Shown here: positions 11,301 through 58,942 of the stretch, one piece after another
Layout: every line of letters begins with the position of its first letter
How positions within the stretch are numbered: position 1 is the stretch's first letter
Origin: Asterella californica
Lineage: Eukaryota; Streptophyta; Marchantiopsida; Marchantiales; Aytoniaceae
Direction of reading: 5' to 3'
Length of the DNA stretch: 64,000 bases
Assembly: GCA_036924285.1 (NCBI GenBank)
Contig: JAYKYS010000011.1
Location: 9,300,001-9,364,000 of the forward strand
Program-made: the position numbers and the translations under genes
The notes under the pieces: generated by a model
The model's input: the letters and a program-made list of their open reading frames with translations, nothing else
The model's database searches: none
Told to the model about the DNA's origin: nothing

Positions 11301-11313
11301 TATTGGTTACAGC

Positions 11314-28756: not shown

Positions 28757-28864
28757 TGTCGTACGCATACACATCGCTACACAACATACATCGCTGCCAG
28801 AGATACATCACACACACACACAAAACACATGGACGATGTCATACACATACACAAGTGTACCACA
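28757..28864 (-). repeat. GT-rich end module of the G family, copy 2 (G1)
   Basis: In element orientation it follows a purine-rich 'aggggggcgat' and ends 2 bp before the TGTCACGTCAG start of the LTR. The purine tract lies before this module and not directly before the LTR, which is unusual for a polypurine tract. Confidence 0.8.
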
Positions 28865-29037
28865 ATCGCCCCCCTAACTAGCGATTAGGTCCCTCTAACT
28901 CCAGATAGCTCCATATCCCAACTACGCAATATACACCTTCATGAGTGCAAGGATCAGGAGGCCAGGTGCTACATTGCCTTATCGTTAGTCACATGTCTGC
29001 AATCCATACCACGCAAAGATCTAATCGACTATCCCTA

Positions 29038-29262
29038 CTATATACATTGAGGACAAACCCACCGTCCTATAGGAATGACAGTGAGAGGTGGAGTCAAACA
29101 TGACATGTGCCAACCTCTCAAACAACCATCACACATCAACATACGGGCTGCTCCACCAGCAGACCCACACAACATACACCACAAGCCCGCACGTACAACT
29201 GCCAAGCTTGGATCAACGGTACCATCAATGTTGGGAAGATGACATGGCGCGCAATTACGCAC
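29038..29262 (-). CDS. PHD finger at the C-terminus of the G1 polyprotein
   Basis: The minus-strand frame carries a complete C4HC3 zinc-binding signature: CMLC, then MCDGC after 11 residues, GWHMSC, and finally WVCPQC. All eight ligands are present, as are the usual Trp before the last Cys pair and the G-W-H segment. The spacing matches classic PHD fingers, which bind histone H3 tails. It follows the integrase tail in the same frame as the GPY/F-like segment (29583-29332), with one stop or break between. A decayed copy sits at the same place in G3 (58500-58645). In an intact element it could steer integration or bind host chromatin; this is inference. It ends at a stop codon close to position 29038, so it is the end of the polyprotein. 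Confidence 0.88.
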   Translation of the reverse strand: MRNCAPCHLPNIDGTVDPSLAVVRAGLWCMLCGSAGGAARMLMCDGCLRGWHMSCLTPPLTVIPIGRWVCPQCI

Positions 29263-29331
29263 ATGGTCCTTTCAAACAACACCATCACGGTCCTCTAACA
29301 TGAGTACTCCAGAAGATAACACCTCACGCAC

Positions 29332-29583
29332 TCATAAAATAGTACGTCCTGCGGTCACATCCAACGTCGTCGATGCAGTCTGCTGCAGATAGATATAATC
29401 GCCAGGATGAAACCTGCGAATCAATGGCCGATAACCTCCTCCTCGGATAGTTGCATATCTCAACGTGTCTCTATGCTGAGCAATCGCTAGATTCTCAAAA
29501 GCCATGGGCATAACTCTCCGAAATGTCTCTGCTCGTTGAGAACATGCTCTCACCCACATATCCGGGTCATCAAGATTCAGCAC
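29332..29583 (-). pseudogene. GPY/F-like integrase tail of G1
   Basis: The segment from MLNLDDPDMWV through RRFHPGDYIYLQQ to the region ending VTAGRTIL, with the following LRVREVLSSGVLMLEG, is the SH3-like module that follows the catalytic core in many gypsy integrases (pattern F-x-x-G-D-x-V/I, hydrophobic strands, then a leucine-glycine-containing strand). It is in a different frame from the core in G1 but in the same frame in G3, so G1 has a frameshift near 29580. Confidence 0.75.
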
Positions 29584-30161
29584 CTCACACGACGAATGGC
29601 CGAAGGTAGATCTGGATCTCGACCGTATAATAGAAAAAACGGTGAGAAGGAAGCCAAAGACGCTTGTCGACTAAAACGATAGCCCATAGCCAACCATGGT
29701 AACTGCACATCCCAGTCTCCCAAGTGGCCCTTCTGCAAGCCATACTTGCACAATCCTCTCTTCACCGTCTGAACTACCCTCTCCACCAAACCATCCGCCT
29801 CAAGATGATCTCGAGATGTAGTTCGATGATCAATCAGTGCTTGATCACACAAGGCCTGAAACTCACCAACGAACTCTGTACCTTGGTCTGTCAGCACTTC
29901 AGCTGGTGCTCCAAATCGACTCAACACTTGATCTAAGAACGCATACGCCGTCCCTTCACTCGCCTTGTCTGGTAATGCCACCAACTCAATCCACTTGGAG
30001 AAGTGCTCCACCATCACCAACACATACCGATGATGACGTACCGTCAACGGTAAAGGTCCCGCAAAATCCAAACTCCAACGGTAATCCAACCCCATAATCG
30101 GTAAGGGGTGTAGTTGTGGGGTATGAGCATTAAACGATGCTCGTACTCGATCACAAAACAC
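29577..30161 (-). CDS. Integrase catalytic core of G1 (partial)
   Basis: A 194-codon frame with the retroviral-type DDE core: first Asp in WSLDFAGPLP, second Asp in LTDQGTEF, and Glu in the LEADGLVERVVQTVK segment. Further family marks are FSKWIELVALPDK, and FLLYGRDPDLP near the end. The N-terminal HHCC zinc domain is missing because the copy is truncated at 30165; that part can be seen in G2 (38168-38398). The catalytic triad is intact. The enzyme would join element cDNA to target DNA. Confidence 0.92.
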   Translation of the reverse strand: MFCDRVRASFNAHTPQLHPLPIMGLDYRWSLDFAGPLPLTVRHHRYVLVMVEHFSKWIELVALPDKASEGTAYAFLDQVLSRFGAPAEVLTDQGTEFVGEFQALCDQALIDHRTTSRDHLEADGLVERVVQTVKRGLCKYGLQKGHLGDWDVQLPWLAMGYRFSRQASLASFSPFFLLYGRDPDLPSAIRRVRC

Positions 30162-30848
30162 ACATCGTTGTCGTGTGACGTGCTTTTTTTATCTAGGAAT
30201 ATACCGAGTATCTAGCTATAGAGAGTACGTGTCGCACTCCGTGACTCAGAACCAGCGATCACCCAAACCACTCTCTGACCTCCAAGTACACTCTAAACCT
30301 ATCCCGCTACGATATCCTCACGTCCTCTCGGCAAATCTCTCTCTTACTCGACTAGGACTAGAACCGGGGTAACAAGCACGGGTAACATGTTCTTGCCATC
30401 ACCGCAAGCATTCTTGGGTCTGCTAGTCATCACTCCAGCCTCACCACAAGAGAAATACAAGCACTCCTAATAGAAAAGAAACCTAAGCGCAAAGCCCGCA
30501 CACAAATCCAATCAACCAACTGGGCGTACAAACAGGCATGCGAGTATGGAAAGGATCCATACACAAGAAATACTGTCAACAACTCTCCATACCCATAATC
30601 AAGTGTTCTGAAGCACTAGCAAAACCTCCAGGTCGATCTGTTCTTCAAAAGAATCTTAACTCTTGCGTCTTTCAGAGCAAGAACCTTTCAACTTTACCTC
30701 GTTGTCACTTTTGAACCACAGCTCAGAATGAGATGAAACCAAGGCCAACAAATAGCCTGTAGAATAATCTCTCTATTTAGGTATTACATGCAGAGAGATC
30801 ATCTCTGAGTTGGCATCTATGTCTTTCCAAAGTTCACTATTTTTACAA

Positions 30849-33152: not shown

Positions 33153-33164
33153 TGGTATCATAGC
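33153..33164 (+). other. Primer-binding site of copia-2
   Basis: TGGTATCATAGC starts directly after the 5' LTR and matches the initiator-Met-tRNA site with one change from the usual GAGC. Confidence 0.92.
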
Positions 33165-34420: not shown

Positions 34421-34880
34421 TTATGCGGCTTTCGAGCCACAGACTGACTGGGTGATCGACTCCGGCGCCACCAGTCACATGACTCTTCATCGGGAGTGGT
34501 TTAGTTCACTCGAGCCTGTGGAGACTCCACAATTTATGGTGACAGGAGATGACACCAAGCACAAGATCCAGCACAAGGGTAACATTCCACTTGACATTCC
34601 TGCTTCAACGTTTACTGGTATTCGGAATGTCTTACATGTACCCACGTTGACTAGAAACCTGCTATCTGTAGGACAGTTGATAGAGCAGGGTCTGCAAGTG
34701 CGCTTCAATAAAGATGGATGCTTTATTGAAGATTCGAATGGCACTGTCATAGCTCGAGGTATCAAGAGTGGTAGGCTGTTTAAACTAGATGCATCTACGC
34801 CTAAGTTACAGGTTGCCATGTATGGACAGAGTGGTCCAGTAGTGTCTGACATTGACATCTGACACAAGCGAATTGGGCAC
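34421..34880 (+). pseudogene. copia-2 aspartic protease
   Basis: The active-site sequence DWVIDSGATSHMT is at about 34446-34485, followed by VLHVPTLTRNLLSVGQL and the GAG-pre-integrase start. A nonsense codon at 34860-34862 lies just before HKRIGHMNF; the position is a conserved Trp in related elements, so a G-to-A change is the likely cause. Confidence 0.92.
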
Positions 34881-35726: not shown

Positions 35727-35816
35727 TCTTGGTTTGCACCTGCGCCTGTCGTAGCCATCCGTGTACCTACTGTAGAACCAAGGAGTCAGTCCACTGTAAT
35801 ACCTCAGAGTAGTACG

Positions 35817-37775
35817 TTGAGTGGAGGATCTGGAGAAATCACTGATTCCAGATCAGAATCTGTTGCACATAGAGCTGTTGTTAACGCTGGAGTCCACGTA
35901 ACACAGCCTAGTGGAACTAGTGTAGTTTCTACACAGGATGAGCGAGTGCTATTGCAACGTATGTTTGACTCATCCATGTATGTGGATCTTCCACATCCAC
36001 TGGATACTTTGTCCCAGACCTTGGCGTCTACGTCAGATCAGTTGCAAGGGGAGGTGACTAGTGCACCGATTACCTCTCGCAGATCTGAGCGGGCAAAACA
36101 TCCAGTGAGTAGGTATATGCATGAAGGTTTTCTTGCTGCGCGCCATGCATATATGGCCAATGTTCTTCAGGAACAGGAACCGAGTTCGCTTGAGGAGGCG
36201 ATGCACAAGGCCCAATGGGTAAGTGCTATGGAAGCTGAACTTGCTACGCTTCATCACCAACAGACTTGGGAGTTGGTAGACTTACCTCAGGGTAAGAAAG
36301 TGATTGGTTGCAGATGGGTCTTCAAGGTCAAGCGCAACTCTGATGATATCGTGTGTCGGTACAAGACCAGATTGGCAGCTAAGGGCTACGCACAGCAACA
36401 TGGAGTGGATTTTGAGGAGACCTTTGCTCCTGTTGCGAAGATGGTGACTATTCGAACAGCAATTGCAGTTGCAACTCAGAAAGGTTGGAAGATGCACCAG
36501 ATGGACTTCAAGAACGCCTTCCTCAACGGCGATCTTGAGGAGGAGTTCTACATGCAGCAACCTCCTGGTTATGAGGATCCTATGTTTCCTTCCCGTGTAT
36601 GTAAGTTACGGAAGGCCCTATATGGTTTGAAACAAGCACCAAGAGCATGGTATGCAAAGATCAATTCTTACTTGCAGTCTCTTGGTTTCCATCTTTGTAG
36701 TTTAGACTCTACCTTGTATTCATTGAGAGTACGAGACCGGATTGTTATGATCACCATCTATGTTGATGATTTGATCATTATCGGTAACTTTGAGGAGCTT
36801 ATTTCCCAGATCAAGGATCACTTGAAATCCGAGTTCGAGATGATGGACTTAGGAGAACTCAAGTACTTCCTTGCTGTGAAGTTCATTAGAGATGGGAATG
36901 ATGTTTGGCTTGTACAGCGACAGTATGCTCTCAGTATGTTTGAGAGATTTGGTATGCTTGATTGCAAACCCATTGCTACACCATTAGAGCAAGGGGTAAA
37001 GCTAGGAGTAGAGGATGGTGAGTTCCTGGATGATCCACGCATGTACAGACAGATGGTTGGGAGTCTTATCTACTTGACCATCACCAGACCAGACTTGAGC
37101 TATGTTGTCGGTCTGATTAGTCAATTCATGCAGTCACCACGGAGACCACATTTTGAGGCTGTCAAGCGGATCCTCCGCTACGTAAAGTTCTCGATGCAGT
37201 ACGGACTTCACTATCGATACGGTGGACCAATGTTGTTACATGGCTACACAGATGCTGATTGGGCAGGAAGTGCCGACAGGAGATCCACGTCAGGTTACGC
37301 TTTTGGACTTGGAAGCGCCGCTATAAGCTGGGCTTCTAAGAAGCAACCCACAGTTGCTTTGTCGTCCACGGAAGTAGAGTACCGAGGAGCAACGAACGCA
37401 ACATGCGAATCGATTTGGCTTCGATGTCTGCTATCTGATATTGGTGTGGAGTGTACAGATCATGTTGTTGTATATGCAGACAACATTAGCAGCATGAAGT
37501 TAGCTAGTAATCATGTTTTCCATGCTAGGACGAAGCACATTGAGGTGCACTATCACTTTATTAGAGAGAAGGTCCTTGCAGGAGAGATTGAGCTCAGTTA
37601 TGTGAGCACAGGAGATCAGGTTGCCGATATCTTCACTAAGGCATTGCCTAGAGATAAGTTTGATGCTTTCAGACATTGTCTAGGAGTACAGGATGTAGAG
37701 ATGAGCTTGAAGGGGAGTGTTGATATAGTCCCAAGCTCTAGTAGATCGACGGCTATCATTAGCCGGAGTGGTTAG
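35817..37775 (+). pseudogene. copia-2 reverse transcriptase and RNase H
   Basis: A 652-codon open frame that is intact throughout RT and RNase H. RT motifs are RLAAKGYAQ, QMDFKNAFLNGDLEEE, LYGLKQAPRAWY, and the catalytic YVDDLIIIG. RNase H has YTDADWAGS, SSTEVEYRGA, YADNISS and HARTKHIEVHYH, giving all expected acidic residues. The last codons run into the 3' LTR and end at 37775. Catalytic residues are all present, so this half would be active if translated; upstream stops prevent full polyprotein synthesis. Confidence 0.96.
37704..37717 (+). other. Polypurine tract of copia-2
   Basis: The purine-rich 'gcttgaaggggag' lies directly before the 3' LTR and would prime plus-strand synthesis. Confidence 0.88.
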
Positions 37776-37946
37776 GGTTGTTAGAGTTAGTTAGAGGGCT
37801 AACCCACCATTAGGGTTTCCCTTGTACTCACCTCCACTATATATACAAAGAGAGGCAAAGCCTCTCTCATCTCATTCCTATTTTACTTCTTTATCTACTC
37901 GTTCTCTCTCTTCTTGGAGTGTCCTCGAAGTATCGATCTTTCTACA
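37718..37946 (+). repeat. 3' LTR of copia-2
   Basis: 229 bp, identical in length to the 5' LTR, five transitions different (about 2 percent). Followed by the target duplication cgtac. Confidence 0.95.
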
Positions 37947-37951
37947 CGTAC

Positions 37952-38700
37952 CGTCAATGATAAAGGTCCCGCAAAATCCAAACTCCAACGGTAACCCAAC
38001 CCCATAATCGGTAAGGGGTGTAGTTGTGGGGTAGGAGCATTAAACGACGTCGTACTCGATCACAAACCACACATCGTGCGATAAACTGTTGCACATCGAC
38101 GTGCATACCACGCCACCAATACTGTCCTTGGAGTAAGCTATGCGTATGTAAGCTATGCGTATGTAAGCTATACGTACGGGATAGGAGCATTAAACGATGC
38201 TCGTACTCGATCACAAACCACACATCGTGCGGCAAACTGTTGCACATCGACGTGCATACCACGCCACCAATACTGTCCTTGGAGTAAGCTATGCGTACGT
38301 TTCACTCCAAAATGTCTCAACTCCTCATGAGCATGTCGTACTAACTGTGCCCTCTGGGATGGATGTGGCACTATCCGTACTCTCTCATCATCCCACACTC
38401 GAAGTACATGTCATCCTTCTCGTCGAAATCTCTTCGCTCGTTGAAGGACACGATCTCGCTACTTGGCACTTATTGTGCCTACCACCACGCCAGTACGTAG
38501 ATACTCCATCACGATCTTATCGTCATGGATATCTCGCTGGTTAGAAACACCATCTCCATCTTCAGGATCTGGAGACTCGTCATCTACTCTCTCACTTGAG
38601 AAAGATACGACTTGGCCCTCCATACTAGAGTTCATGGCCAACACACAAAGAAATGCAGATGCATGTCACTTTGACACTATCTCCTCATCAACCTCGTCAT
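37952..38700 (-). pseudogene. G2 integrase, N-terminal part with local duplication
   Basis: Minus-strand frame 38398-38168 shows the integrase zinc domain (HAHEELRHFG, then YWWRGMHVDV and CVVCDRVRASFNA). About 115 bp of this region occurs twice (near 38030-38148 and 38182-38298), with 'gtaagctatgcgtat' repeated three times between, so the gene has suffered an internal tandem duplication. Further down (37952-38080) it reads into WSLDFAGP-type sequence and then meets copia-2. Confidence 0.85.
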
Positions 38701-38809
38701 GCCATCGAGCCCAAGTCTGATCCTGCTGACTCGTGCATGGGTTACGACTCAACCCATCAGCATATAGGTTTGCAACTCCCGGTCTATGCACTACCTGGAA
38801 GTCATACTC

Positions 38810-39166
38810 CTATAAGATCAGAGCCCATCGTGCAAGCTTCCTTGTAAACTTATCGGACTCCATCAACCACTTGAGCGGCTGGTGATCAGTGATGAGAGTA
38901 AAGGGGTTCCCAAACAAGTAACATCGGAAGTGTGCAACAGCCCACACTGCAGCTAAACACTCCCTCTCGTACGAACTGTACCTCACCTCCGTCAAATTGT
39001 TGGAGCGACTGGCATATGCCACCACAAACTCCTTTTTCTCATCATCATGTTGAGTCAACATTGCTCCAAGTCCCAACATACTCCAATCAGTGTGCAGTTG
39101 GAAAGGACGTCCCCTAACGGGTCTCTTCAAGATGGGAGCAGATGTCAACCTATCCTTGAGCTCCAC
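38810..39166 (-). CDS. G2 RNase H (partial frame)
   Basis: The frame contains PFQLHTDWSMLGLGAML, FVVAYASRSN, YSSYERECLAAVWAV and LITDHQPLKWLM, the standard order and acidic residues of gypsy RNase H. It is in the same frame as RT upstream, separated by a TGA in the DQE-QW context at about 39185-39190 that G3 shares. Confidence 0.92.
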   Translation of the reverse strand: MELKDRLTSAPILKRPVRGRPFQLHTDWSMLGLGAMLTQHDDEKKEFVVAYASRSNNLTEVRYSSYERECLAAVWAVAHFRCYLFGNPFTLITDHQPLKWLMESDKFTRKLARWALIL

Positions 39167-39196
39167 AAAAGCTCGCTCTTGCTCATCTCTCCACTG

Positions 39197-40180
39197 TCAC
39201 TCTTGGTCCACCTTCATCAGCTTGGTCAATGGCTTCGCAATTGCACTAGATCTTTTCACGTATCGACGATAAAAGTTCACCAAAATGCTCGAACTCGACT
39301 CACATCGGTGGGGCGTGGAATACGTACAATAGCCTCGACCTTCGTCTGTTGAACACCCAACCCACCTGGATAGATGGTGTGATCCAGATACTCTATCAAC
39401 TCTTGGAAGAACTTTGCACTTCCCAAGGTGTAACTTCAATCCATGAGCTCTCAACCGCTCGAACACATCTCGTAAGTGTCTCTTGTGCTCTTCCACTGTA
39501 GCACTATAGACTAAGATGTCATCAATATAGCATCTGACAAAATCCAATCCTGCTAGGATCCTATCCATCACTCTTTGGAATTCAGCAGGAGCGTTCTTCA
39601 ATCCAAATGGTAAGAACCGCCACCGATACAAACAATCCTTGCCGTGAGAGTCAATCCTCCAGAATGTTGTCTTGGGTTTATCTTTCTCTCTCACCGGCAA
39701 CTGATGATACCCTGCTCGAAGATCCAAAGTACTGAAGACCTTCACATGCCCCACTGCATCAAAGATCTCCTCAGGTGTCGGTATGGTATACTTATAGGAC
39801 TTCGTCTGCCGATTGATCGGACGGTAGTCTCCACACATACGTCTATCCGTATAGTTGCCATACATATCCTTCTTTGCTGGCATAACTATGGCAGATGCAT
39901 ACTCTCCATATGACATCTCCACCAACTCAACTTCCACTAAGTCTTGAGTCCTACTCTAGATCAAGGTTCTTTCCATGTCACTATACCTGTAAGGACGTCG
40001 AAAGATTGGCGTGTCATTAGCCAAGTCGATCCGTATACCCGGTCCCTTCAAGGTACCCAAATCCTTCATACTAAAGATAAAACAATTCTTGTAGCTCTTC
40101 ATGAATCTTTGAACTCTTCGTCTCTCCTCTTCTATAAGCTTGGGTCTAATCTCTGACTCCCAAGTATCCTCTGTCACCAT
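39197..40180 (-). pseudogene. G2 reverse transcriptase
   Basis: Motifs are MCGDYRPINRQT, PTPEEIFDAVG, FSTLDLRAGYHQL, RFLPFGLKNAPAEFQRVMD and the active site CYIDDILVYS near 39525-39540, with both catalytic Asp residues. The N-terminal extension 40180-39956 (IGPKL-like EEERRRVQRF, FIFSMKDLGTL) is joined through a TAG stop at about 39953-39955 that is present at the same place in G3 and G4b. A frame break near 39390 precedes the palm/thumb end. Confidence 0.94.
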
Positions 40181-40327
40181 GCTAGAGGTAGAAGACGAAG
40201 TCGTTGACTGCTATCTTGCAGCCTCTGGAGCAGTTTCCTTCTGCTCACCATCAACAACCTCCACCGCTACTGTGTGAAAAACTTCTGCAGTTCTAGCTGC
40301 AAGCTCCATACTCTCTCCTACAACATC

Positions 40328-41794
40328 TCATGATGTCCAAGGATGACGAACTCCACGTGCCTCGCCTCCAGCCTTTGTCTCCACCGCCTCGGTAGACAAA
40401 GAGCTCAGGAGCGTTCGAGCAGTAACATCCGTCAATCGCATCCGACGCTGCTCAGCCAATCCAAGGCTAACAATCCATGTCAAGCAGTTCAAGTCCATTG
40501 CTTGACCCAACACTTGACGACGTGAAGCCTCCGACATTGAAGCTACTGCCGTTGTACCCGTAGGAAAACCCATCGCTCTCTCTCTCTCGTCGGCATTGGG
40601 CTCCACCAACTGTTGTAACCGAGTATCCCACACAAGCCCAGGTCCTCCATATCTGTAAGCATGTGACGTTGGAAAGCTCACCAAAGTGAGTAACGCTGTC
40701 ATAAGTCGTCCCACTAGGTTCACAACTGCCATGGGTGACCTATCGACGACTCTCACTACTTGAGATCGTCGTCCTGCATCCAAGATGCCATCAACTGTGA
40801 GGTGCGCTGGTCGTCTCACTGCATCGTGTGCGCGCTTGAGCACTTCCCTCGATGACAAGTTCGTCCATCACAACCGTGTACGATGTGCACGAGATCCCAC
40901 TCTCGCTGCATCTAACAACACTACCGGTCCGACCCAGGACCGCACCTGGTGCACACTCGTTATCATATGTGCACGAACATCACCTAATAAAGGAACGTTC
41001 CCCAAGATGTACGTTGGAGAATCCACCTGATGCATCTGAAGATGTCGTAAGATCCGTAACATCTCCCAAAACATCTTAGATCGTGGGTCATGCAAACCAT
41101 GACCTCTCCCAGCACGGGTGTGACCTTGACATGACCACCCAGCTATCACCAAGTGAATGGTGCCAACAAACGTGAGATCTTGCGCCCCCAGCAGCAAAAT
41201 ATCTGACGGTAATGCTTGCTAGTATCCTCTAACGGCTGATATAGGCAACAACTCAGGATATCTTTGCGCCAAACGTGTCACGTGACGCAATGAGACGCGT
41301 CTTGCGACCTCATCTCTCTCCACATACAAGTATCGCTGTACTTGTATGTCTGCCTGCAATACCGCAGCCAAACCTGTGCTGATCCCTCCAAACAGCTCCA
41401 GCACACACACACCCTCCTCTGGATATTGCCATACAATGGGAGTCGTATCCAGCGGTGTTAAGTTCACATGGCCAGTAACAGGGACACCTTGATGTTCCTC
41501 TACTGACGGTACAAAGGCTTCACTCCAAACCTGCTGCACCAATCGATCAGCATACTGCTGCAACTCTCCGCTCGAACTCCAAAGTGGAACATCCAAGGCA
41601 GATGGTACTAACATAGACATGCTAGGCATGTCCTCCACCTCCTCAAAGACCGGAGTATTCTCCGCATGGACTTTGCCTTCTAACAATTCATCAGGCCAAG
41701 TGATGATCGAACTGAACCCTACAACGGATGCCATCGTCCCTGTAAGCTCCGTTGTCCAAATTCTAGCATTGAACCGCACTGGTAAGTGGCTCAC
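40328..41794 (-). pseudogene. DNMT3-like C5-cytosine methyltransferase domain in G2 pol
   Basis: Between protease and RT, and in the same frame as both, lies a C5-methyltransferase. Motif I is VLELFGGISTGLAA (41370-41415), followed by QRYLYVERDEVARR. Motif IV is VIAGWSCQGHTRAGRG with the nucleophile Cys codon at 41129-41131; the residue before it is Ser where Pro is usual. Then come HDPRSKMFWE and motif VI, which reads LGNV (ENV expected; codon 41000-41002 is GGG). Motif VIII is DAARVGSRAHRTRL, and near 40560 ERERAMGFPTGTT with a following RRQVLGQAMD is motif IX-X. The linear order I to X matches DNMT3 and excludes the permuted DRM order. Two in-frame stops (41219-41221; near 40863) and one at its end (near 40325) interrupt it. 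It would methylate cytosines, perhaps in element cDNA or at insertion sites; this is inference. Confidence 0.9.
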
Positions 41795-41845
41795 TCGTCT
41801 CTCACCGGACTGCCAACCTGGTCTGTAAGATGCTGTCTCTACTCA

Positions 41846-42331
41846 CTAGTCGATCACGAATCCCATAGGATACAATATAGCACCTCCAACCAATACATCA
41901 TAAGACTCCGCGGCCGTAACGATAGCCTTGGCCCTCACCATAGAACCATCCGTGGGATGATCTGGTCTAACTCTTACCGTCAGCAACTCGCTTGTCATGT
42001 TTAGAGTTGTACCTCCTGATCTCTCTAGAGATGTCTGTAGCTGGAATGGACATCTCTCCACTTCGGACTTCCTCAGACCCAAATCGATACACGCCGCCTT
42101 CCCCAACATCAACGGTTGGGCTCTAGAGTCTAGCAACACTTTCTGTGGTCGATACACCTTCTCTGAAGGTGCCACCAAACAAAAGATACCACTTTTGTTG
42201 TCTAACAACACCACACTTGGTGCCAATCCAGCACGATCAATTGCTGGTCTAGCTAGTAACTCATCTAGCCTTGCAGTCGCCGCTTGCCAAGTACCAGTAG
42301 TAGCTGTCCTGATCTTCGACTCTATAGACAC
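41846..42331 (-). pseudogene. G2 aspartic protease
   Basis: Retropepsin-like segment: KVLLDSRAQPLMLGKAA (active-site D-S-G with Gly changed to Arg), GIFCLVAP upstream, and SYDVLVGGAILYPMGFVID as the distal flap/psi-loop end. Upstream residues WQAATARLDELLARPAIDRAGLAP form the linker from Gag. The frame is the same as that of the methyltransferase domain. The Gly-to-Arg change should abolish activity. Confidence 0.82.
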
Positions 42332-42504
42332 ATCTACCGCCTATTGCTGAACCACTTCAGCGCTAGAGGTAACCACATCCTCGCTCTCACTGAGCGTGGC
42401 TGCCAACTGGAACACTGGAGCCAAGCTGACTCCCAATGCCTTCATATCCGTGGCTGAGAATAGTGGGGCTCGCAAAACTGCTGTAGTGCCCTCAACATCG
42501 AGTT

Positions 42505-44227
42505 CTATGTTGCATCTACAGACGTCGAAGGTTGACTTACATCACCTCTATTCCTGGATGTCGATGCCTCCAATTCCACTGCACCATCGGTAGGCCGTTT
42601 AGGAACCATAGACGTGGTCTTCAACGCCTCTGATAACGTGAATGATTGAGATGGCCTGGTCTGTCTACCAGCCTCCCCGCGTTGTGGATCCAACTCCACC
42701 GACGCACCTCGTGGCTCAAAGACACGTACTGCACTCCGAGTCACTGCCGCAGATGTCTCAATCTGTGCTACACCAGCCATGAAGTCGAAGTCACCTCCTT
42801 CTCCTCCATAAGATGTGGAAGCTTCCGTTCCACCATATCTCCGCTGAGCCATAGCCATACTAGTTATCTTCTGCTCCAGCTGCTCAATCCGAGTAGCCAT
42901 ACCGGCTTCTGACGTCGTAGCAAGCGATGGACCGATTGGTCCTCTCTCAAGTGCTGGACCTCTATCTCCAGCTCGACCACCACGGCCTCCTTGAGCTCCT
43001 CCGCCTCGTCCACGATCAGCCTTCCTTTACCGTAGCTCAGGATGGAGATCAAAACAACGGTCACTATTGTGAACTGGTCGCACGCAATGCTAACACTGCC
43101 TAGGCACCGCTTGAGACGTCCCAAATGTCTCATAACCACCTCTCCTTTGTGGACAATCCTTCTGCTGATGAGGACCATCACACGTCCAGCAAGGACCTGC
43201 TTGCTGCTGACTAGAGAAGGACGGCATTGGCTTCTGTCCACCAGATCCTTCAACACATCCATGGGATCGTGAGTGTTCAGCACGATCCTTACCACCACCA
43301 CCACCACGCTGTTGCGTAGCCTGTGATCCTCGAGAAGAAGAGGTCGTCCCATGTGATGCGTCCCTGTTGAACCCTGCTCTCCTCTACCATGTTGAGCTCT
43401 ATCCGCTCAATCAAACCAAAGACAACCGCCAATGTCGGAGCGGTGTCTCTAAGGAGAGTGGTATCCCTGACTCTCCTACCCAGCTCCCGGTCTAGTATCT
43501 CCTACCAGAATTGGACTGCCTGTGCTTCTGTCACCCCTTGGGTAACGCTGATCAACCGCCTCATGCGAGTAAACGCCTCGCGTAGGCTCTCTCCAGTCTT
43601 CCGCTGGAACTCTTGCAGACTCTTCAACTTGTCGGTCCGCACACCCTGATAATTCTTCCTCAAACAGTGGAAGAACTGAACCACATGGTTAAACTCTGGT
43701 GGTATCCCGCTCGCACTACCACCTGCTCCACTACTAGTGGATGCACCGCTGGTAGTAGGGACTCTGCCACCCGTGGATGTATCACTACTACTGGCACCTG
43801 ACCTCGTAGGTGCTACGCCTCCCGAAACTGCACCAGTAGTGATAGAAACATAGTTGGGAGACCAATGTTGTCTCCACAACTCAATCTCAACACCGTAGTC
43901 TCGCTTGAACTCGTGGTAATCGTCCATCGGTGGTCCCTCCAAGTGCTAAAACAAACCCTTCCACGTCATGAAAAGTGTGAACAATTGTGAGTTCCGCATC
44001 TGTTGCAGATCGCACCAACTGTCAAACTCCTGGATGAAGTCATCCAGCTCGATGATATCCACCGTACTCGAGTAACGTTGAGGCCCTTTCGTAGCCTCAT
44101 AGATCTTGTCCATGTCCCACCACAACGATGTGGCGACACTAGACTCACCACCAGAAAACGTACTGTCTGCGTCTGACTTGTCCTCTGGAACAACCAACGG
44201 CAATGGTGTAAGTCGTCGGTACCTCAC
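42505..44227 (-). pseudogene. G2 Gag with CCHC knuckles
   Basis: The likely start is Met at 44227. Frame 44227-43946 is acidic (DFIQEFDSWCD); after a stop, 43942-43502 contains DDYHEFKRDYGVE, a Gly/Ser/Thr-rich spacer, and PPEFNHVVQFF with LQEFQRKTGESLREAFTRMRR, the retrotransposon Gag core. Two zinc knuckles follow: CWTCDGPHQQKDC (43150-43191) and a second C-x2-C-x4-H-x4-C at 43054-43099 that has an in-frame stop. A coiled-coil-like segment IEQLEQKITSMAMAQ (42900-42840) and a Ser/Thr-rich tail lead to protease. Confidence 0.85.
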
Positions 44228-44422
44228 CCCACTCCGTGTATACCCATTATCCGAGAAGTCCCCACCAGAACCTCCCGAGAACTCCGTGGTGATAGAATCT
44301 CATAGACACACTCTCTAACCAGAATGTCGAAATCCTCGTCACCACCGTAACTACAACTCGCCTATCCTCGCTCCTATTGAGCTCACCTATCCCCTACTAG
44401 GACAGTCAAGATAAGGGCAACA

Positions 44423-45853
44423 TGTACCTGCCATGACCACAAGCAGCCTCTCACGGTTTGTTGGTCGTCACTCCAATTGCACCGTGAGAGAAACAAAGAT
44501 AGTCTGATTGCTCATCACTCCAACCTCACTACCGACAGCACACTAGAGTGAACTCACTCTGGAAATCAAGCGCCAACACAAGCAAACGCGGCGCACAAAC
44601 AGGAAGCAGAATATGGAGAGTTTCCAACCACAAGAAGTCCAAACGATAACCCTCCACACTCAAACATTCACATAAAGAGAAACCCAGTCTCACTCGGACT
44701 GAGCCGTCTTCTTCGGTGACCACATGCACAATATATGGTCACCGACTGTCATAACCTGCACCTAAGGTCACTAACTAGATGTCCACACCTCTAATAGCTC
44801 TAAAAATATCAACGTGGTAGCTCTACTAGCTCATCCAAGATAACTGCCACCAACTGCCTCCATACGCGTCTTTACGGTATAGACAAACACCACCACAATA
44901 GCAGCTTCCTCAGTACTATGGGGTCGCCCTACCACTCCTCTAGCAACGTGCGAGCAGGTCTCCTACTACCTTAAACCAGCCCCTAAGTACTTGCACGCAT
45001 CCCTGTAAGACACCAAGAGCTATTGGTCTAGTGGTACAACCAAAGCTAAGACTACAGAGTTAAGCGTCCAAGTCCAGAAATAGTGTTGGGATGGGTGACC
45101 TACTGGTTTTACACTTCCCACACAACTGAAACTTGGATACTTCTCTCACGCACGCCAGCAAGCTGGCTTGTGCGGGTTCAGGCTCGGCTCCGTCTCCGCA
45201 CTCTCGCACTCCGTTCTCACGCCTCCGCACTCACGCACCTCTGCTCCTCGAAGCCTCTAAACGCCTCCTAACACGGACTCCACACCTCGACACTCCCGCT
45301 CCCGAAAATAGGTCACTTTAACACATTCTGTCAAATTTCAAAAGCGCTTCCGTACTACCTCATCACCAAATCGACTGAGAACATGTTCAGACAACGCCCA
45401 TCCACACAGCGATCGATCACAACACCCAAAATGAACTACTCCACGCACGCGCGCACCCGCAGATCGAAGATATCAACAATTTGCGAACTCCGGAGATACC
45501 ACCGGCAGCAATCCGCGACCTGAAATCCCTCAACCAGGCCTCGCAATCTGAGTTCTTCAAGTGATAACAAGGTATTTACTCACTCCATCATGCCAACATG
45601 CACTAGACAATCACTACAGTCGAGCCAAATCCACTCTGTGCTCGCAGAGAATCCAGATCTCACTCACAAGACTACCCACCATAGCCAAGAACTTGAAGGC
45701 TCAACTTGAAGAACTGAAGTCTCCAAGCCCTACCTGCGAAGTATACCCTTTGCGGGCACTCTCACCAACTTGCCCTAACTGGACTAACGGCCTTACCAGG
45801 ATTCCCCACTTCGCACTCGATCAACCTAGTTGAGTAGCCAAACTGACGTGACA
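44423..45853 (-). repeat. 5' LTR of G2
   Basis: In element orientation it starts TGTCACGTCAG at 45853 and ends GGCAGGTACA at 44423. It matches the LTRs of G1 and G3. Unlike G1, no GT-rich module precedes its start, so the module is not part of this LTR. The inverted words 'ctctcacggt...ccgtgagag' lie near its 3' end (44450-44495). Confidence 0.75.
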
Positions 45854-49094: not shown

Positions 49095-50124
49095 ATATAT
49101 ACAACGCTGCTCACTTTGGTGAGCTTTCTAGCGTCATATGCTTACAAGATGGAGGACTGGGGCTTGTGTGGGATGCTCAATTACAGCAGTTAGTGGAGCT
49201 CAATGCCGATGAGAGAAAGCGAGCGATGGATTCCTCTATGATACGACTCTTCGATATCAGAGGCTTCACGTCGTTAGATGTTGGATCAAGCAATGGACTT
49301 GAACTGCTTGACGTGGATTGTTAACCTTAGATTGGTTGAGTAGCATCGGACGCGATCGACGGGTGTTACTGCTTGGACACTTCTGAACTCTTTGCTTATC
49401 GCGTCGGTGGAGGCAAAGGTTGAAGATGAGACGTGTGGAGTTCGTCATCCTTGGACATCATGAGATGTCTTAAGAGAGAATATGGAGCTTACAACTAGGA
49501 ATGCAGGATTTTTTTGCACATTGGAGGTGGAGGTTGTTGATGATGAGCAGAAGGAAACTGCTCCGGAGGTTGTAAGATAGCAGTCAACGACTTCGTCTTC
49601 TATCTCTAGCATGGTGATAGAGGATACTTGAGAGCCAAAGATTGGACCCAAGTTTATAAGAGAAGAGAGACGAAGAGTTCAGAGATTCTTGAAGAGCCAC
49701 AAGAATTGTTTTACCTTCAGTATGAAGGATTTGGGTACCTTGAAGGGACCATGTATACGAATCGACTTGATTAGTGATACGCCAATCTTTCGATGTCTTT
49801 CCAAATATAATAACATTGAGAGAGTCTTGATCTAGAGTAGGACTCAAGATTTGTTGGAGGTTGGTGGAGATGTCGCATGGAGAGTACATATTTGTCATAG
49901 TTATGACAGCAAAGAAAGATATGTATGACAACTGCTCGAATAGACGTATGTGTGGAGATTATCGTCTTACCAATCGGTAGACGAAGTCCGATAAGTATGC
50001 CATGTCGACACTTGAGGAGCGAGGGCATGTGAAGGTCTACAGTATTTTGGACCTTCGAGCAGGGTATCATCAGTTGCCAGTGAGAGAAGAAGATAAGTCT
50101 AAGACAACATTTTGAGGAATTGAC
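49095..50124 (+). pseudogene. Gypsy fragment G4b: methyltransferase end to RT start
   Basis: Plus-strand fragment beginning in the methyltransferase C-terminus (GLGLVWDAQLQQLVELNADER, 49150-49215) and ending in RT after the LRAGYHQLPVREED region (50045-50110). It carries several stops and deletions. It has the same TAG before RT (near 49831-49833, LI-stop-SRTQDLL) as G2 and G3. It is cut off by the 5' LTR of G3. Confidence 0.85.
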
Positions 50125-51386
50125 TATCACGTCGGTTTGGCACCTCGGCTAGGTTGGCCGAGTGCGGAGTGGCGAATCCGGTAGGGCCGTTAGTGCCGTT
50201 AGGACGAGTTGGTGGGATAGTCCACTAGGGATACACTTCGCAGGTAGGGCTTGGAGGTCTTAGTTCTTCGAGTTGAGCCTTCAAACTCCTGGCTATGATG
50301 GATAGTCTTGGTGAGTGCAATCTGGATTCTCTGCGAGCACAGAGTGGATTTGGCTCGACTTTAGTGATTTTTTAGTGTCCATTGGCATGGTGGAGTGAGT
50401 ACATATCGTATATCACTCAAAGAACTCGAACTGCAAGGTCTGATTGAGAGCTTTCAGGTTGCAGATTTTTGTCGGTGGTATCTCCGGAGTTGACAGATCG
50501 TTGGTATCTTCGATTTACGGATGCGCACGTGCGCACCCGCAAATGCACCTCGAGGAGCAGTGGTGCGTGAGTGCGGAGGCGTGAGAAGCGGAGTGCGGAG
50601 GTGGAGCGGAGCCTGAGCTCGAACCCGAGTCCGCCGCAAGCCAGCTTGTTGGCGTGCATGAGAGAGGTATGCAAGTTTCAGTTGTGTAGGAAGTGTAAAA
50701 TCAGTAGGTCACCAATCCCAACACTATTCTTGAACTTGCACACTTAACTCTGTAGTCTTAGCTTTGGCTTTATCACTAGACCAATAGCTATTGGTGTCTT
50801 CTAGGGATACGTGCAAGTACTTATGGATTTGTTTAAAGTAGTAGGAGATAGTAAGAGATCTTCTCGCACGTTCCTAGAGGAGTGGTAGGACAACCCCATA
50901 ATACTAAGGGGAAGCTGTTGTTGTGATAGTGTTTGTCTATATTGTAGAGACGCGTATGGAGGTAGTTGTCTTGGGTGAGCTAGTAGAGCTATCACGTAGA
51001 TATTTTTAGAGCTACTAGAGGATGGACATCTAGTTAGTGATCTTAAGTATCCGTCACGATAGTTGGTGATCATATATTGTGCATGTGGTCAACGAAGAGA
51101 AGACGTCAGTCCGAGTGAGACTAGATTTCTCGTTATGTGAATGTTTGAGTGTAGAAGGTTATAGTTTGGACTTCTTGTGGTTGGAACCCATACATATTTT
51201 ACTTCTTGTTTGTGCATCGCGTTTGCTTGTGTTGGTGCTTGATTTCTGGAGTGAATTCACTCTAATGTGCTGTCCATAGTGACGCTAGAGTTGCAGATCG
51301 GTCAGACTACTTTTGTTTCTCTCACGGTGCAGTTGGATTGAGGACCAATAGATCATGAGAGGTTGTCTGTGGTGATGGAAGGTACA
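50125..51386 (+). repeat. 5' LTR of G3
   Basis: Starts TATCACGTCGG (TG changed to TA) and ends GGAAGGTACA. The left flank is G4b RT sequence. No GT-rich module precedes it. Confidence 0.75.
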
Positions 51387-55440: not shown

Positions 55441-55580
55441 TGGACATCATGAGATGTTATAGGAGAGAGTGTGGAGCTTGCAACTAGGACTGCAGAATTT
55501 TTCGCACAATGGTGGTGGAGGTTGTTGGTGGTGAGCAGAAAGAAACTGCTCTAGAGGCTGCAAGATAGCAGTCAAGGACT

Positions 55581-56573
55581 TTGTCTTCTATCTCTAGGAC
55601 TTGGAAGTCAGAGATTGGACCCAAGCTTATAGAAGAGGAGAGACGAAGAGTTCAGAGATTCCTGAAGAGCTACAGGAATTATTTTGCCTTTAGTATGAAA
55701 GATTTGGGTACCTTGAAGGGACCTGGTATACAGATTGACTTGGCTAATGACACGTCAATCTTTCGACGTCCTTATAGATACAATGACATGGAGAGAACCT
55801 TGATCTAGAGTAGGACTCAAGACTTGTTGGAGGTTAGGTTGGTGGAGATGTCGCATGGAGAGTACGCATCTGTCACAATAATGTCAGCAAAGAAGGATAT
55901 GTATGGCAACTACACGAATAGACTGATGTGTGGAGACTACTGTCTTATCAATTGGCAGATGAAGTCCGATAAGTATGTCATGCCGACACTTGAGGAGATC
56001 CTTGATGCAGTGGGACATGTGAAAGTCTTCAGTACTTTGGATCTTCGAGCAGGGTATCATCAGTTGCCAGTGAGAGAAGAAAATAAGTCCAAGACAACAT
56101 TCTGAGGAATTGACTCTCACGATAAGGATTATTTGTATCAGTGACGATTCTTACCATTTGGGTTGAAGAACGCCCCTGCTGAGTTCCAAAGGGTGATGGA
56201 CAGGATCCTAGCAGGATTGGATTTTGTCAGATGTTATATTAACGACATCTTAGTCTATAGTGCTATAATGGAGGAGCACGAAAGACACTTACGAGATGTG
56301 TTCGAGCGGTTGAGAGCTCATGAGTTGAAGTTACACCCTGGGAAGTGTAAGTTCTTCCATGAGTTGGTAGAGTATCTGGATCACACCATCTACCCATGTG
56401 GGTTGGATGTTCAACAGACGAAGGTTGAGGCTATTCAACGTATTCCACGCCCCACAGATGTGAGTCGAGTTCAGACATTTGTTGATTTGACGAATTTCTA
56501 TCATCGATACGTGAAAGAGTATAGTGCAATTGCAAAGTCATTGACCAAGCTGATGAAGGTGGATCAGGAGTGA
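55581..56573 (+). pseudogene. G3 reverse transcriptase
   Basis: Same layout as G2: EEERRRVQRFLKSYRNYF, a TAG at 55806-55808, then MCGDYCLINWQMKSDKY, FSTLDLRAGYHQL, a stop, NAPAEFQRVMD and the active site CYINDILVYS (56230-56257), where the first catalytic Asp is Asn. It ends with FYHRYVKEYSAIAKSLTKLMKVDQE before a TGA shared with G2. Confidence 0.92.
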
Positions 56574-56638
56574 CAATGGGAAGATGAGCAAGAGTGAGCT
56601 TTTGTAGAGCTCAAGGATAAGTTACATCTACTCCCATC

Positions 56639-57060
56639 TTGAGGAAACCCGTTAGGGGGCGTCCTTTCCAACTGCATACCGATTGGAGTATGTTGGGACT
56701 TGGAGCAGTGTTGACTCAACATGATGATGAGAAAAAGAAGTTTGTGGTAGCATATATCAGTCGCTCCAACAATTCGGCAGAGATGAGATATAGTTCGTAC
56801 GAGAGGGAGTATTTAGCTATATTATGAGTTGTTGCACACTTCTGATGTTATCTGTTTGAGAACCTCTTTACTCTGATCACTGATCACCAGTCGCTCAAGT
56901 GGTTGATGAAGTCCGACAAGCTTACAAAAAAGCTTGCACGGTGGGCTTTGGTTTTACAAGAGTATTACGTCCAAGTAGTGCATAGGCTCGGAGTTGCAAA
57001 CCTAGATGTCGATGGGTTGAATCGCAACTCATGCACGAGTCAAAAGGATCAAACAGAGGC
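56639..57060 (+). pseudogene. G3 RNase H
   Basis: PFQLHTDWSMLGLGAVLTQ, VVAYISRSNNS and YSSYEREYLAI are present, then after a stop LITDHQSLKWLM. Same order as G2. Confidence 0.88.
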
Positions 57061-57091
57061 TCGATGACATGACGAGGTTGATGAGGAGATA

Positions 57092-58330
57092 GTGCTAGGA
57101 TGGCATGCACCTGCCTTTGTTTGTGTGTTGGTCATGAACTCTAGTATGGAGGGCCAGGTCGTATCTTTCTCTGGTCAAAGAGTAGATGATGAGTCTCCAG
57201 ATCTTGAGGGTGGAGATGTTGTTCCAGACCAGCGAGATATCCACGACAGTGTGACTGTAATGGAGTATCTACGTACTGACGTGGTGGTAGACACAGTAAG
57301 TGCCAAAGAGCGAGATCGTGTCTTTCAACGAGCGAAGAGATTTTGACGAGAAGGACGACATGTACTTCGGGTGTGAGATGATGAGAGAGCACGGATAGTG
57401 TCACATCCATCCCAAAGGACACAGTTCGTATGACATGTCCATGAGGAGTTGAGACATTTTGGAGTGAAGCGTACGCATAGCTTACTCTAAGGATAGTATT
57501 GGTGGCGTGGTAAGCACATCGATGTTGCAGCAGTTTGTCGCACGATGTGTGATTTGTGATCGAGTACGAGCATTGTTTAATGCTCCTACTCCACAGTTAC
57601 ACCCCTTATCAATTATAGGGTTCGGTTACCGTTGGAGTTTGGATTTTGCTAGACCCTTATCGTTGATTGTACGTCATCATTGGTATGTGTTGATGATGGT
57701 GCAGCTCTTCTCCAAGTGGATTGAGTTGGTGGCACTACCAGATAAGACGAGTGAAGAGACGGCGTATGCGTTCTTAGATCGAGTGTTGAGTTGTTTTGGA
57801 GCACCACCAGTCGTACGGAGTTTCTTGGTGAGTTTCAGGTCTTGTGTGATCATGCGCTGATTAATCATCAGACTACATCTCGAGATCATCCTGAGGCGGA
57901 TGGTTTGACAGAGAGGGTAGTTCAGACGGTGAAGAGAGGATTGCACAAATATGGCTTGCAGAAGGACCACTTGAGAGAATAAGATGTGCAATTACCATGG
58001 TTGACTATGGGCTACCGTTTTAGCCGACAAGCGTCTTTGACTTCCTTCTCACTGTACTTTCTATTGTATGGCCGAGATCTAGATTTATCTTCAGTCATTC
58101 GTCGTGATTCTGCTGAGATGTTGAACCTTGATGACCCGGATATATGGGTGAGTGCATGTTCTCAATGAGCAAAGACATTTCTGAGAGTTATGCCTATGAC
58201 TTTTGAGAACCTAGCGATTGCTCAGCATAGAGACACGTTGCGATATGCGACTAGTCGAGGAGGAGGAGGTTATCGACCATCGATTTGTAAGTTTCATCCT
58301 GACGATTATATCTAGCTACAGCAGACTGCA
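57092..58330 (+). pseudogene. G3 integrase
   Basis: The zinc region (near 57430-57560) is followed by CVICDRVRALFNAPTP, WSLDFARPLS (first Asp) and FSKWIELVALPDKTSE. The second Asp region is lost in a deletion near 57800-57830. The catalytic Glu segment PEADGLTERVVQTVKRGL (57890-57945) and the tail through MLNLDDPDIWV and HPDDYI are kept. From 57986 on, the integrase tail and the PHD finger share one frame. Confidence 0.88.
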
Positions 58331-58333
58331 CCG

Positions 58334-58645
58334 ATGAGGTTAGATGTGACCGCAAGGCGCATTATTTTACGAGTGTGTGAGGTGTTGTCTTCTAGAGTAC
58401 TCATGTTAGAGAGGGGTGATGATGTTGTTTGGAAGGACCACGTGCGTAATTGCACGTCATGTCATCTTCCCAACATCGATGGTACCGTTGACCCAAGCTT
58501 AGCAGTTGTACGCACGGGCTTGAGGTGTATGTTGTGTGGGTCTGCTGGTGGAGCAGCCCTTATGTTGATATGTGGTCGTTGGTCGACAGGTTGGCACATG
58601 TCATGTTTGACTTCATCTCTCAATGTCGTTCTTAATGGACGATGA
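58334..58645 (+). pseudogene. G3 C-terminal tail with decayed PHD finger
   Basis: The same frame as integrase holds VRNCTSCHLPNIDG, CMLCGSAGG, ICGRW (the second Cys of this pair is lost), GWHMSC and, after a stop, VCPRC. The position and spacing match G1, which shows the PHD finger is a stable part of the family and not a chance fusion in one copy. Confidence 0.85.
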
Positions 58646-58838
58646 GTTTGTCCTCGATGTATATAGCAGGGATAGTCGATTAGATCTTTGTGTGGTATAG
58701 ACTACAGACATGCGACTAACGATCGGACGATGTAGCACCCGGCCTCCTGATCCTTGCACCCATGAAGGTGTATATCACGTAGTTGAGATACGAGACTATC
58801 TGGAGTTAGAGGGACCTAACGTCAATTAGGGAGAGGAT

Positions 58839-58942
58839 TGTGATACACTTGTGTATGTGTATGAGATCGTCCATGTGTTATGTGTATGTGGTGTATCTCT
58901 GACAGCGATGTATGTTGTGTAGCGATGTGTATGCGCACGACA
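58839..58942 (+). repeat. GT-rich end module of the G family, copy 5 (G3)
   Basis: Follows the purine-rich 'agggagaggat' and ends GCGCACGACA, where G-family sequence stops. Confidence 0.8.

What the first reader, a model, noticed from the sequence alone, without database searches (positions are those of the whole stretch)
40328..41794. Gypsy retrotransposon with an in-frame DNMT3-like cytosine methyltransferase between protease and RT
Seen: motifs I, IV (with Cys), VI (degenerate), VIII, IX and X in linear order, in the same frame as protease, RT, RNase H and integrase. Known: C5-methyltransferase motif order, with DNMT3 linear and DRM permuted; methyltransferase-bearing retrotransposons were reported from dinoflagellates and charophytes (de Mendoza et al. 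2018, from memory). Inference: the element may methylate its own DNA or its insertion site. The class is known, but the DNMT3-like type and the combination with a PHD finger deserve study.
Basis: partly seen in the sequence, partly recalled or inferred. Interest (0 to 1): 0.9.

Follow-up and report, generated by a model that had tools for sequence, protein, structure and literature searches.

The report
Plant retrotransposon carrying a DNA methyltransferase
A jumping gene in a plant-like genome carries its own DNA-methylating enzyme beside its coat protein, ahead of a stop signal of a leaky type, and near-identical copies across the genome suggest that it has been active recently.

Summary
Window 40328-41842 (minus strand) reads as a decayed, linear, DNMT3-like cytosine methyltransferase (MT) between protease and reverse transcriptase of a Gypsy element (A); a second copy (B) and a fragment (C) lie nearby. 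DNMT3A/B/C are the closest solved structures, by sequence and by a relative's predicted fold. The class is known (KnitGypsy-Dnmt3, 2018). The own genome adds more: 768 places match the MT-RT junction, 40 of 40 scored MT hits are 99-100% identical, and 16 of 123 scored hits keep a ~1370-aa frame. In these, ORF1 is Gag-protease-MT, then comes one in-frame UAG in the type I readthrough context (UAG CAG UCA), then ORF2, RT-RNase H-integrase-PHD finger. MT should thus be made at Gag level (inference). Ends are TG...CA with 4-bp target duplications in 5 of 6 copies, yet the repeats are split (A-coding-B-A-B), as reported for KnitGypsy. MT is under purifying selection (Ka/Ks 0.20). Relatives occur in liverworts, Sphagnum and Closterium, although a 2019 paper says that methylase transposons are absent from land plants. 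Likeliest role, untested: methylating the element's own cDNA. New variant of a known kind.

The parts
45616..45853 (-). Element A, 5' terminal repeat A1 (matches positions 1-240 of a 294-bp repeat; starts TGTCACGTC)
   Evidence: 83% identity to the A repeat of a young genomic copy; start read
44306..45302 (-). Element A, 5' untranslated region
   Evidence: 84% identity to the young copy
42398..44299 (-). Element A, Gag with zinc knuckles (decayed)
   Evidence: 89% nucleotide identity to the ORF1 gag part; Retrotrans_gag E=0.0085, below its cut-off; zinc knuckles by eye only
41846..42340 (-). Element A, protease region (VLLDS-AQPLMLG motif, by eye)
   Evidence: no Pfam hit here, Asp_protease_2 in 3 of 24 relatives
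40451..41455 (-). Element A, DNMT3-like methyltransferase core, motifs I-X linear, two decay stops
   Evidence: borders by distance from the UAG in open copies
41120..41140 (-). Motif IV with the catalytic cysteine
40211..40213 (-). In-frame UAG between ORF1 (Gag-PR-MT) and ORF2 (RT-RH-INT-PHD), followed by CAGTCA
   Evidence: TAG CAG TCA in 20 of 20 fetched copies and in window copies A, B and C; TAG in 96 of the 100 listed of 768 places
38182..40210 (-). Element A, ORF2 first part: RT, RNase H, start of integrase
   Evidence: RVT_1 3e-28, RNase H 1.2e-35, 92.5% identity to ORF2
37946..38146 (-). Element A, ORF2 continuation, overlapping a small duplication
   Evidence: 94% identity
32924..37946 (+). 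Copia element inserted into element A; 229-bp LTRs 98% alike, 5-bp target duplication CGTAC
29041..30168 (-). Element A, ORF2 last part: integrase core and C-terminal region
   Evidence: rve 3.8e-15; 93.8% identity
29044..29178 (-). PHD finger at the C-terminus of the integrase ORF
   Evidence: PF00628 1.7e-11; coordinates
28757..28866 (-). Element A, repeat B1
   Evidence: 92% identity
28380..28754 (-). Element A, repeat A2 directly after B1 (two adjacent matches, both starting at repeat position 1)
50127..50372 (+). Element B, repeat A1
   Evidence: 85% identity
51510..53381 (+). Element B, Gag
   Evidence: 83.5% identity
53382..55565 (+). Element B, protease and methyltransferase (decayed, many stops)
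55566..55568 (+). Element B, UAG before ORF2
55569..58663 (+). Element B, ORF2
   Evidence: 89% identity over its whole length
58837..58942 (+). Element B, repeat B1; no A2 match after it
49113..50131 (+). Fragment C: MT tail, UAG, start of RT

Best explanation
It is a retrotransposon with Ty3/Gypsy proteins that has taken up a DNMT3-like cytosine methyltransferase (MT). Shown: in open copies ORF1 encodes Gag, zinc knuckles, protease and MT; a single in-frame UAG in a type I readthrough context follows; ORF2 encodes RT, RNase H, integrase and a PHD finger; MT is kept by selection; copies are recent. Inferred: most ribosomes stop at the UAG, so the particle holds Gag-PR-MT in excess over the readthrough product that also carries RT, RNase H, integrase and PHD. 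MT, freed or still tethered to Gag, methylates the double-stranded cDNA as it is made in the particle. The DNA then reaches the nucleus already carrying 5-methylcytosine, which could shield it from sensing, nuclease or deaminase, or preset the chromatin at the new site. The PHD finger probably reads a histone H3 tail and steers the integrase.
For: Anatomy of 20 fetched copies: ORF1 1367-1381 aa in 16, ORF2 1038-1041 aa in 12. UAG CAG UCA in 20 of 20, TAG in 96 of the 100 listed of 768 places; UAG CARYYA is the published type I readthrough signal (PMC11166343, passages). Ka/Ks: MT 0.20 (0.15-0.26), PR 0.18, Gag 0.30, RT 0.09. Catalytic Cys in 109 of 113 relatives that cover it, motif VI Glu in 133 of 144; Cys codon in 99 of the 100 listed of 362 genomic places. 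AlphaFold2 model of the relative P0004, pLDDT 88.6; the 50 Foldseek PDB hits listed are all DNMT3 entries. MT, RT, RNase H and integrase in one 1217-aa protein of another source, P0173. Recent activity: A1 and A2 98.6-100% identical in 6 copies, 40 of 40 scored MT hits 99-100% identical. The PHD finger matches ordinary PHD fingers of CHD4, MLL3, DPF2, PHF12 and KDM5B best.
Against: No activity, expression or readthrough was measured. In the 2018 yeast test the K. nitens Gypsy MT gave no methylation, which its authors call inconclusive (PMC5890265). No clear CG-specific footprint: singleton C>T and G>A are 0.115 and 0.145 per site in CG, 0.124 and 0.108 elsewhere; CpG o/e is 0.72 (0.65-0.75) in the 20 copies against 0.76 in window 1-26000; A against B shows CG>TG/CA 145 of 638 against GC>GT/AC 170 of 708. 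The 20 copies were picked for long open frames, which favours few stops. In the window, MT differences between A and B fall evenly on codon positions (51, 45, 50), so those two show decay, not selection; only gag (44, 38, 68) and RT (20, 16, 31) lean to position 3. A Met codon lies 11 codons after the UAG, so another way to start ORF2 is not excluded.
Confidence: 0.5

Rival explanations
1. MT limits the element: it marks new copies for host maintenance methylation, so that each insertion is soon silenced and the host is spared, which keeps the family alive in the long run.
For: Many copies (768 exact junction places; 1,213 B1-A2 places within 2 mismatches) and a C>T bias in all contexts, as expected of heavily methylated plant elements. 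The 2018 authors name a restraint of this kind.
Against: Selection for self-restraint is weak in theory; host enzymes (a linear DNMT3 in L017, and a permuted DRM-like gene in L018) could do this alone.
Confidence: 0.2
2. MT works on RNA or as a nucleic-acid binding part of the Gag particle, not as a DNA methylase.
For: Fused to Gag-PR rather than to RT; only about 20% identical to DNMT3 in the fold alignments; the K. nitens relative was inactive on yeast DNA.
Against: Catalytic Cys and motif VI Glu are nearly invariant; the profile is nearest to DNMT3, not to the RNA enzyme DNMT2 (DNMT3A 1.2e-22 against 8.1e-7).
Confidence: 0.15
3. MT is inert baggage or a chance neighbour, for instance a host gene caught beside a dead element.
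For: In the window all three copies are broken.
Against: Fixed place in other copies (23 of 31 on C1), Ka/Ks 0.20, relatives in liverworts, Sphagnum, Closterium and metagenomes, several with RT or protease in the same protein.
Confidence: 0.03
4. The UAG is an ordinary stop: ORF2 is made by another route (re-initiation, a second mRNA), and the CARYYA context is coincidence.
For: A Met codon lies 11 codons after the UAG; chance of CARYYA after a given stop is 1 in 512 if bases are equally frequent (own arithmetic); no strong RNA structure at the site (z -2.0, 8 of 200 shuffles as good).
Against: Same frame on both sides in the copies with both ORFs open, and family-wide conservation.
Confidence: 0.15

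Closest known systems
KnitGypsy-Dnmt3 of Klebsormidium nitens (de Mendoza et al. 2018, PMC5890265; parts 1-4 of 7 read, that is abstract to discussion and the first methods; supplement not read)
   Same: Gypsy domains, intronless, DNMT3-related MT without rearrangement, purifying selection, repeats arranged as in DIRS elements.
   Different: The paper places MT in the Pol polyprotein ORF; here it ends the Gag-protease ORF ahead of a UAG. The main text has no word beginning with PHD or protease.
SymbioDIRS-Dnmt3 and SymbioLINE-Dnmt of Symbiodinium (same paper)
   Same: Retrotransposons with a cytosine methyltransferase; SymbioDIRS uses DNMT3 and methylated CG in yeast.
   Different: DIRS with tyrosine recombinase, and LINE; here a DDE integrase and 4-bp target duplications.
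Eukaryotic DNMT3 (human DNMT3A; host gene in L017)
   Same: Linear motif order, best sequence and fold match.
   Different: Motif IV reads GWPCQG; no ADD or PWWP match among the Pfam hits; in a tree the element MTs form their own branch beside DNMT3 plus DRM.
Chromodomain Gypsy elements (PMC6338049, passages, and search listings)
   Same: A chromatin reader on a Gypsy polyprotein (at the integrase C-terminus, recalled).
   Different: A PHD finger instead of a chromodomain.
Retroelements with a stop between gag and pol (Tca2, PMC2194720, search listing only; soybean SIRE1 recalled)
   Same: In-frame stop between two ORFs.
   Different: Here an accessory methyltransferase lies upstream of the stop.

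Membership tests
KnitGypsy-Dnmt3 kind | Gypsy domain content with DDE integrase and no tyrosine recombinase | tested here: met
   RVT_1, RNase H, H2C2, rve; 4-bp target duplication in 5 of 6 copies
KnitGypsy-Dnmt3 kind | In-frame DNMT3-like MT, not rearranged | tested here: met
KnitGypsy-Dnmt3 kind | DIRS-like repeat order A-coding-B-A-B | tested here: met
   six copies: A 294 bp and B about 108 bp, each twice; one copy has about 20 extra bp between A2 and B2
KnitGypsy-Dnmt3 kind | MT inside the Pol polyprotein ORF | tested here: not met
   MT ends ORF1 (Gag-PR-MT) before a UAG in the fetched copies; fused to RT without a stop in P0173 of another source
KnitGypsy-Dnmt3 kind | Sequence kinship to the K. 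nitens protein | not testable with these tools
   No K. nitens protein among the rows listed (92; 120 of 252; 35); proteins above about 1369 aa were outside the last search
DNMT3 | Linear motifs I-X (DRM is permuted) | tested here: met
   host gene in L018 is permuted, host DNMT3 in L017 is linear
DNMT3 | Branches inside the DNMT3 clade | tested here: inconclusive
   Elements are one branch (90/97) beside DNMT3 plus DRM, apart from six viral-contig enzymes (93/91); only two DNMT3 rows; AU test of elements+DNMT3 without DRM p=0.107
DNMT3 | De novo DNA methylation | not testable with these tools
   no assay
DIRS | Tyrosine recombinase | tested here: not met
   rve and H2C2 integrase instead; no recombinase among the Pfam hits
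DIRS | No target-site duplication (recalled) | tested here: not met
   4-bp duplications in 5 of 6 copies
Ty3/Gypsy (Metaviridae) | Order RT-RNase H-integrase, TG...CA ends, short target duplication | tested here: met
Ty3/Gypsy (Metaviridae) | Two like, full LTRs | tested here: not met
   5' end has A only, 3' end B-A-B: Gypsy by its proteins, not by its ends
Ty3/Gypsy (Metaviridae) | tRNA primer site next to the 5' LTR | tested here: inconclusive
   two initiator-Met patterns absent near A1 in one copy; no other tRNA tried

The most novel reading that the evidence does not exclude
A hybrid replication system: an integrase element whose DNA ends are templated, DIRS-like, from an internal B-A joint (which reads ...CA-GC-TG..., like two joined element ends), and which packs a DNMT3-type methyltransferase at Gag level through a leaky UAG, so that its cDNA is methylated in the particle before integration. 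One such lineage would be ancient in streptophytes and still active in land plants.
Probability: 0.3. Interest if true: 0.82.

Novelty: new variant of a known kind. Interest (0 to 1): 0.63.

Why it matters
Why a transposon would carry the kind of enzyme that hosts use to silence transposons has been open since 2018. A family with hundreds of copies, at least 40 of them 99-100% identical in MT, in what is probably a land plant, with MT under selection and encoded with the coat protein, would be a good test case. It also questions a stated limit: a 2019 paper says that methylase-bearing transposons are not present in land plants such as tracheophytes (PMC6338049, passages), whereas relatives here come from Marchantia, Riccia, Calypogeia and Sphagnum.

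Tried and rejected
Tried without result: Pfam on the stop-free MT pieces; selection from A against B (no codon-position signal in MT); a CG mutational footprint; RNA structure at the UAG (z -2.0); viral contigs (16 loci with distant methyltransferases; six used as outgroups, the label 'phage' in the tree script is mine); a primer-binding site; genome counts of an RT pattern, a second MT pattern, A2-B2 and A1-internal (not completed). Papers on liverwort genomes checked for transposon methyltransferases: the word 'methyltransferase' is absent from PMC9985172 and PMC12885004; nothing on this in the passages seen of PMC9033089, PMC6453930 and PMC10952607.

Considered and rejected: DRM origin (permuted), a DIRS element (integrase, target duplications), a host gene beside the element (fixed place), the PHD finger as the ADD domain of DNMT3 (ordinary PHD fingers match; no DNMT3 chain among the 60 shown of 75).

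No print report of these elements in bryophytes was seen in the listings of nine full-text searches (a tenth was on readthrough). Subscription papers and preprints are not in that library, so this is no proof of absence.

Full report
WHAT THE SEQUENCE SHOWS. On the minus strand of 28.4-45.9 kb lies a decayed Gypsy element (A), on the plus strand of 50.1-58.9 kb a second (B), about 84% identical over 7.1 kb, and between them a fragment C. Between the protease region (41846-42340) and the RT (39197-39955) of A the same frame, broken by several decay stops, reads as a C5-cytosine methyltransferase (MT) with two of those stops inside. Read through with X at the stops it hits Pfam DNA_methylase at 6.6e-5, just above the cut-off, and DNMT3A of the PDB at 1e-8, ahead of DRM2 (8.1e-4) and the bacterial HaeIII enzyme (0.026). 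The motif order is I, IV, VI, VIII, IX, X, linear. The stop-free pieces alone gave no hit.

RELATIVES. A search of 5.8 billion proteins gave 92 matches at E<=1e-3 among 7995 scored candidates: Calypogeia fissa, Marchantia polymorpha, Riccia sorocarpa, Sphagnum species, Closterium and many metagenome proteins; one bacterial label in a later search (P0093, a MAG) is probably a binning error. A profile of eight MT domains (A2) ranks, in the PDB, DNMT3A at 1.2e-22, 4onj (named only 'DNA methyltransferase'; a DRM by recall) at 1.4e-11, HaeIII at 3.5e-9, HhaI at 1.9e-8, DRM2 at 1e-7 and DNMT2-type at 8.1e-7; no chain named DNMT1 or CMT is among the 57 listed. Of the 176 family proteins, 109 of the 113 that cover it keep the catalytic Cys, 133 of 144 the motif VI Glu. 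AlphaFold2 of the relative P0004 with 24 rows gave pLDDT 88.6 and pTM 0.88; the 50 Foldseek PDB matches listed (of 166 at E<=0.001) are all DNMT3 entries, E 1.7e-18 to 8.4e-16, identity 19-23%. P0173, 1217 aa, holds MT, RT, RNase H and integrase in one frame; Marchantia gene models P0162 and P0167 hold MT, RT and RNase H.

TREES. In a tree of 63 rows the window copy falls in a branch of 25 rows (100/99) with the 11 Marchantia rows (one clade, 100/100) and the two Calypogeia rows; the tool warns of several long end branches. In a second tree of 28 rows the 19 element rows form one branch (90/97), beside human DNMT3A, the host's linear DNMT3 (L017) and its permuted DRM-like gene (L018, named by motif order), and apart from six enzymes of viral contigs (93/91). 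The data do not reject elements plus DNMT3 as one clade without DRM (p-AU 0.107), nor show it. So a DNMT3-side origin is supported; capture from a particular host gene is not.

THE OWN GENOME. A linear DNMT3 (1.7e-29 to DNMT3A) together with a DRM-type gene, a streptophyte enzyme according to PMC12344493 (passages), suggests a streptophyte host; with the nearest relatives it is probably a bryophyte, which is inference. PF00145 gave 123 scored matches of 1250 candidates; 16 have an open frame of 1367-1381 aa. A 901-bp MT probe gave 40 scored hits, all 99-100% identical, of 2456 candidates.

ANATOMY OF OPEN COPIES. I fetched 20 copies picked for long frames. ORF1 has 1367-1381 aa in 16 and 1243-1281 in 4; ORF2 1038-1041 aa in 12. 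ORF1 is Gag, zinc knuckles (by eye), protease, MT; ORF2 is RT, RNase H, integrase and, at its very end, a PHD finger. In copies with both ORFs open they share one frame and are parted by a single TAG. TAG CAG TCA is in 20 of 20 and in window copies A, B and C. With the stop codon left free, 768 exact places exist (0 in the reversed control), and of the 100 listed 96 have TAG, 3 TAA, 1 AAG; this pattern fixes the bases after the stop, so it tests the stop only. UAG followed by CARYYA is the type I readthrough signal (PMC11166343). A Met codon 11 codons after the UAG leaves re-initiation possible. The MT Cys pattern has 362 places, 99 of the 100 listed with a Cys codon. On contig C1, 23 of 31 MT places have the junction 880-940 nt downstream and 22 of 31 a B1-A2 joint 4.2-12 kb downstream; of 58 B1-A2 places, 41 have the junction 3.3-12 kb upstream. 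The misses may be decay, insertions or truncated copies; this was not followed.

ENDS. In six copies fetched to the 3' end the order is A1-coding-B1-A2-B2, with A 294 bp and B about 108 bp; one has about 20 extra bp between A2 and B2. A1 and A2 are 98.6-100% identical. The element starts TG and ends CA, and 5 of 6 copies have a perfect 4-bp target duplication, the sixth differs by one base. The B1-A2 joint occurs 1,213 times within two mismatches, 0 in the control. The same repeat order was reported for KnitGypsy-Dnmt3. B1-A2 reads CA-GC-TG, like two joined element ends; I infer that it may template the ends, as in DIRS elements, while an integrase inserts a linear DNA.

SELECTION. Over the 20 copies Ka/Ks is 0.20 (resampled 0.15-0.26) for MT, 0.18 for protease, 0.30 for Gag, 0.09 for RT. 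Values for RNase H to PHD in that call (0.36-0.62) are inflated by copies with broken ORF2 and are not used. The 79 codons between MT and the UAG give 1.67 on a very low Ks (0.0135). MT: no stop in 19 copies, one stop in one; small gaps in two; motif IV GWPCQG in 19, GWPCQD in one; ENV in 20 of 20. The copies were chosen for open frames, which biases against stops rather than amino-acid change. A against B in the window shows no codon bias in MT (51, 45, 50), so those two have decayed freely.

MECHANISM. Best inference: MT is made with Gag, packed, and methylates the cDNA. For: position, selection, catalytic residues, fold. Against: no activity shown; the K. nitens MT was silent in yeast, inconclusively; no CG-specific mutational trace. 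Singleton C>T and G>A run at 0.108-0.145 per site in every context against 0.033-0.037 for A>G and T>C, as expected if host or element methylates all contexts.

AGAINST WHAT IS KNOWN. The kind is known since 2018. Not in the parts of that paper that I read: MT in the Gag-protease ORF ahead of a leaky-type UAG; the PHD finger; integrase-type target duplications on split repeats; a land-plant range. PMC6338049 states that methylase transposons are not present in land plants such as tracheophytes; PMC12344493 speaks of streptophytes and dinoflagellates and of LTR Copia and DIRS elements. By its proteins the element is Gypsy; by its ends it is not an ordinary LTR element.

Noticed in passing
L025-L044, last 40 codons of ORF1: Only 1 synonymous against 14 non-synonymous steps before the UAG (Ks 0.0135 in the last 79 codons, 0.068 in MT): a hint of a constrained RNA signal, or chance among 22 windows.
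   Followed up: partly
P0176 (1224 aa, metagenome): MT, H2C2 integrase and PHD finger in one protein with no RT match, and a long further C-terminal region.
   Followed up: no
32924-37946: Copia element with 98% alike LTRs and a CGTAC duplication, inserted in element A; its frame appears broken by single stops.
   Followed up: partly
30834-31364 and 31316-32845: A 177-bp unit three times in tandem and a 300-bp direct repeat at 1230-bp spacing, lying within the span of element A.
   Followed up: no
9103-12837: A second, decayed Copia-like element on the minus strand, by eye from the ORF list.
   Followed up: no
26441-27762: Further fragments of the same family: 5' UTR on the minus strand, A and B repeats on the plus strand.
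   Followed up: no
L017 and L018: The host has both a linear DNMT3 gene and a permuted DRM-like gene.
   Followed up: partly
P0093: A protein of this family labelled as from a Candidatus Obscuribacterales MAG, probably a binning error.
   Followed up: no
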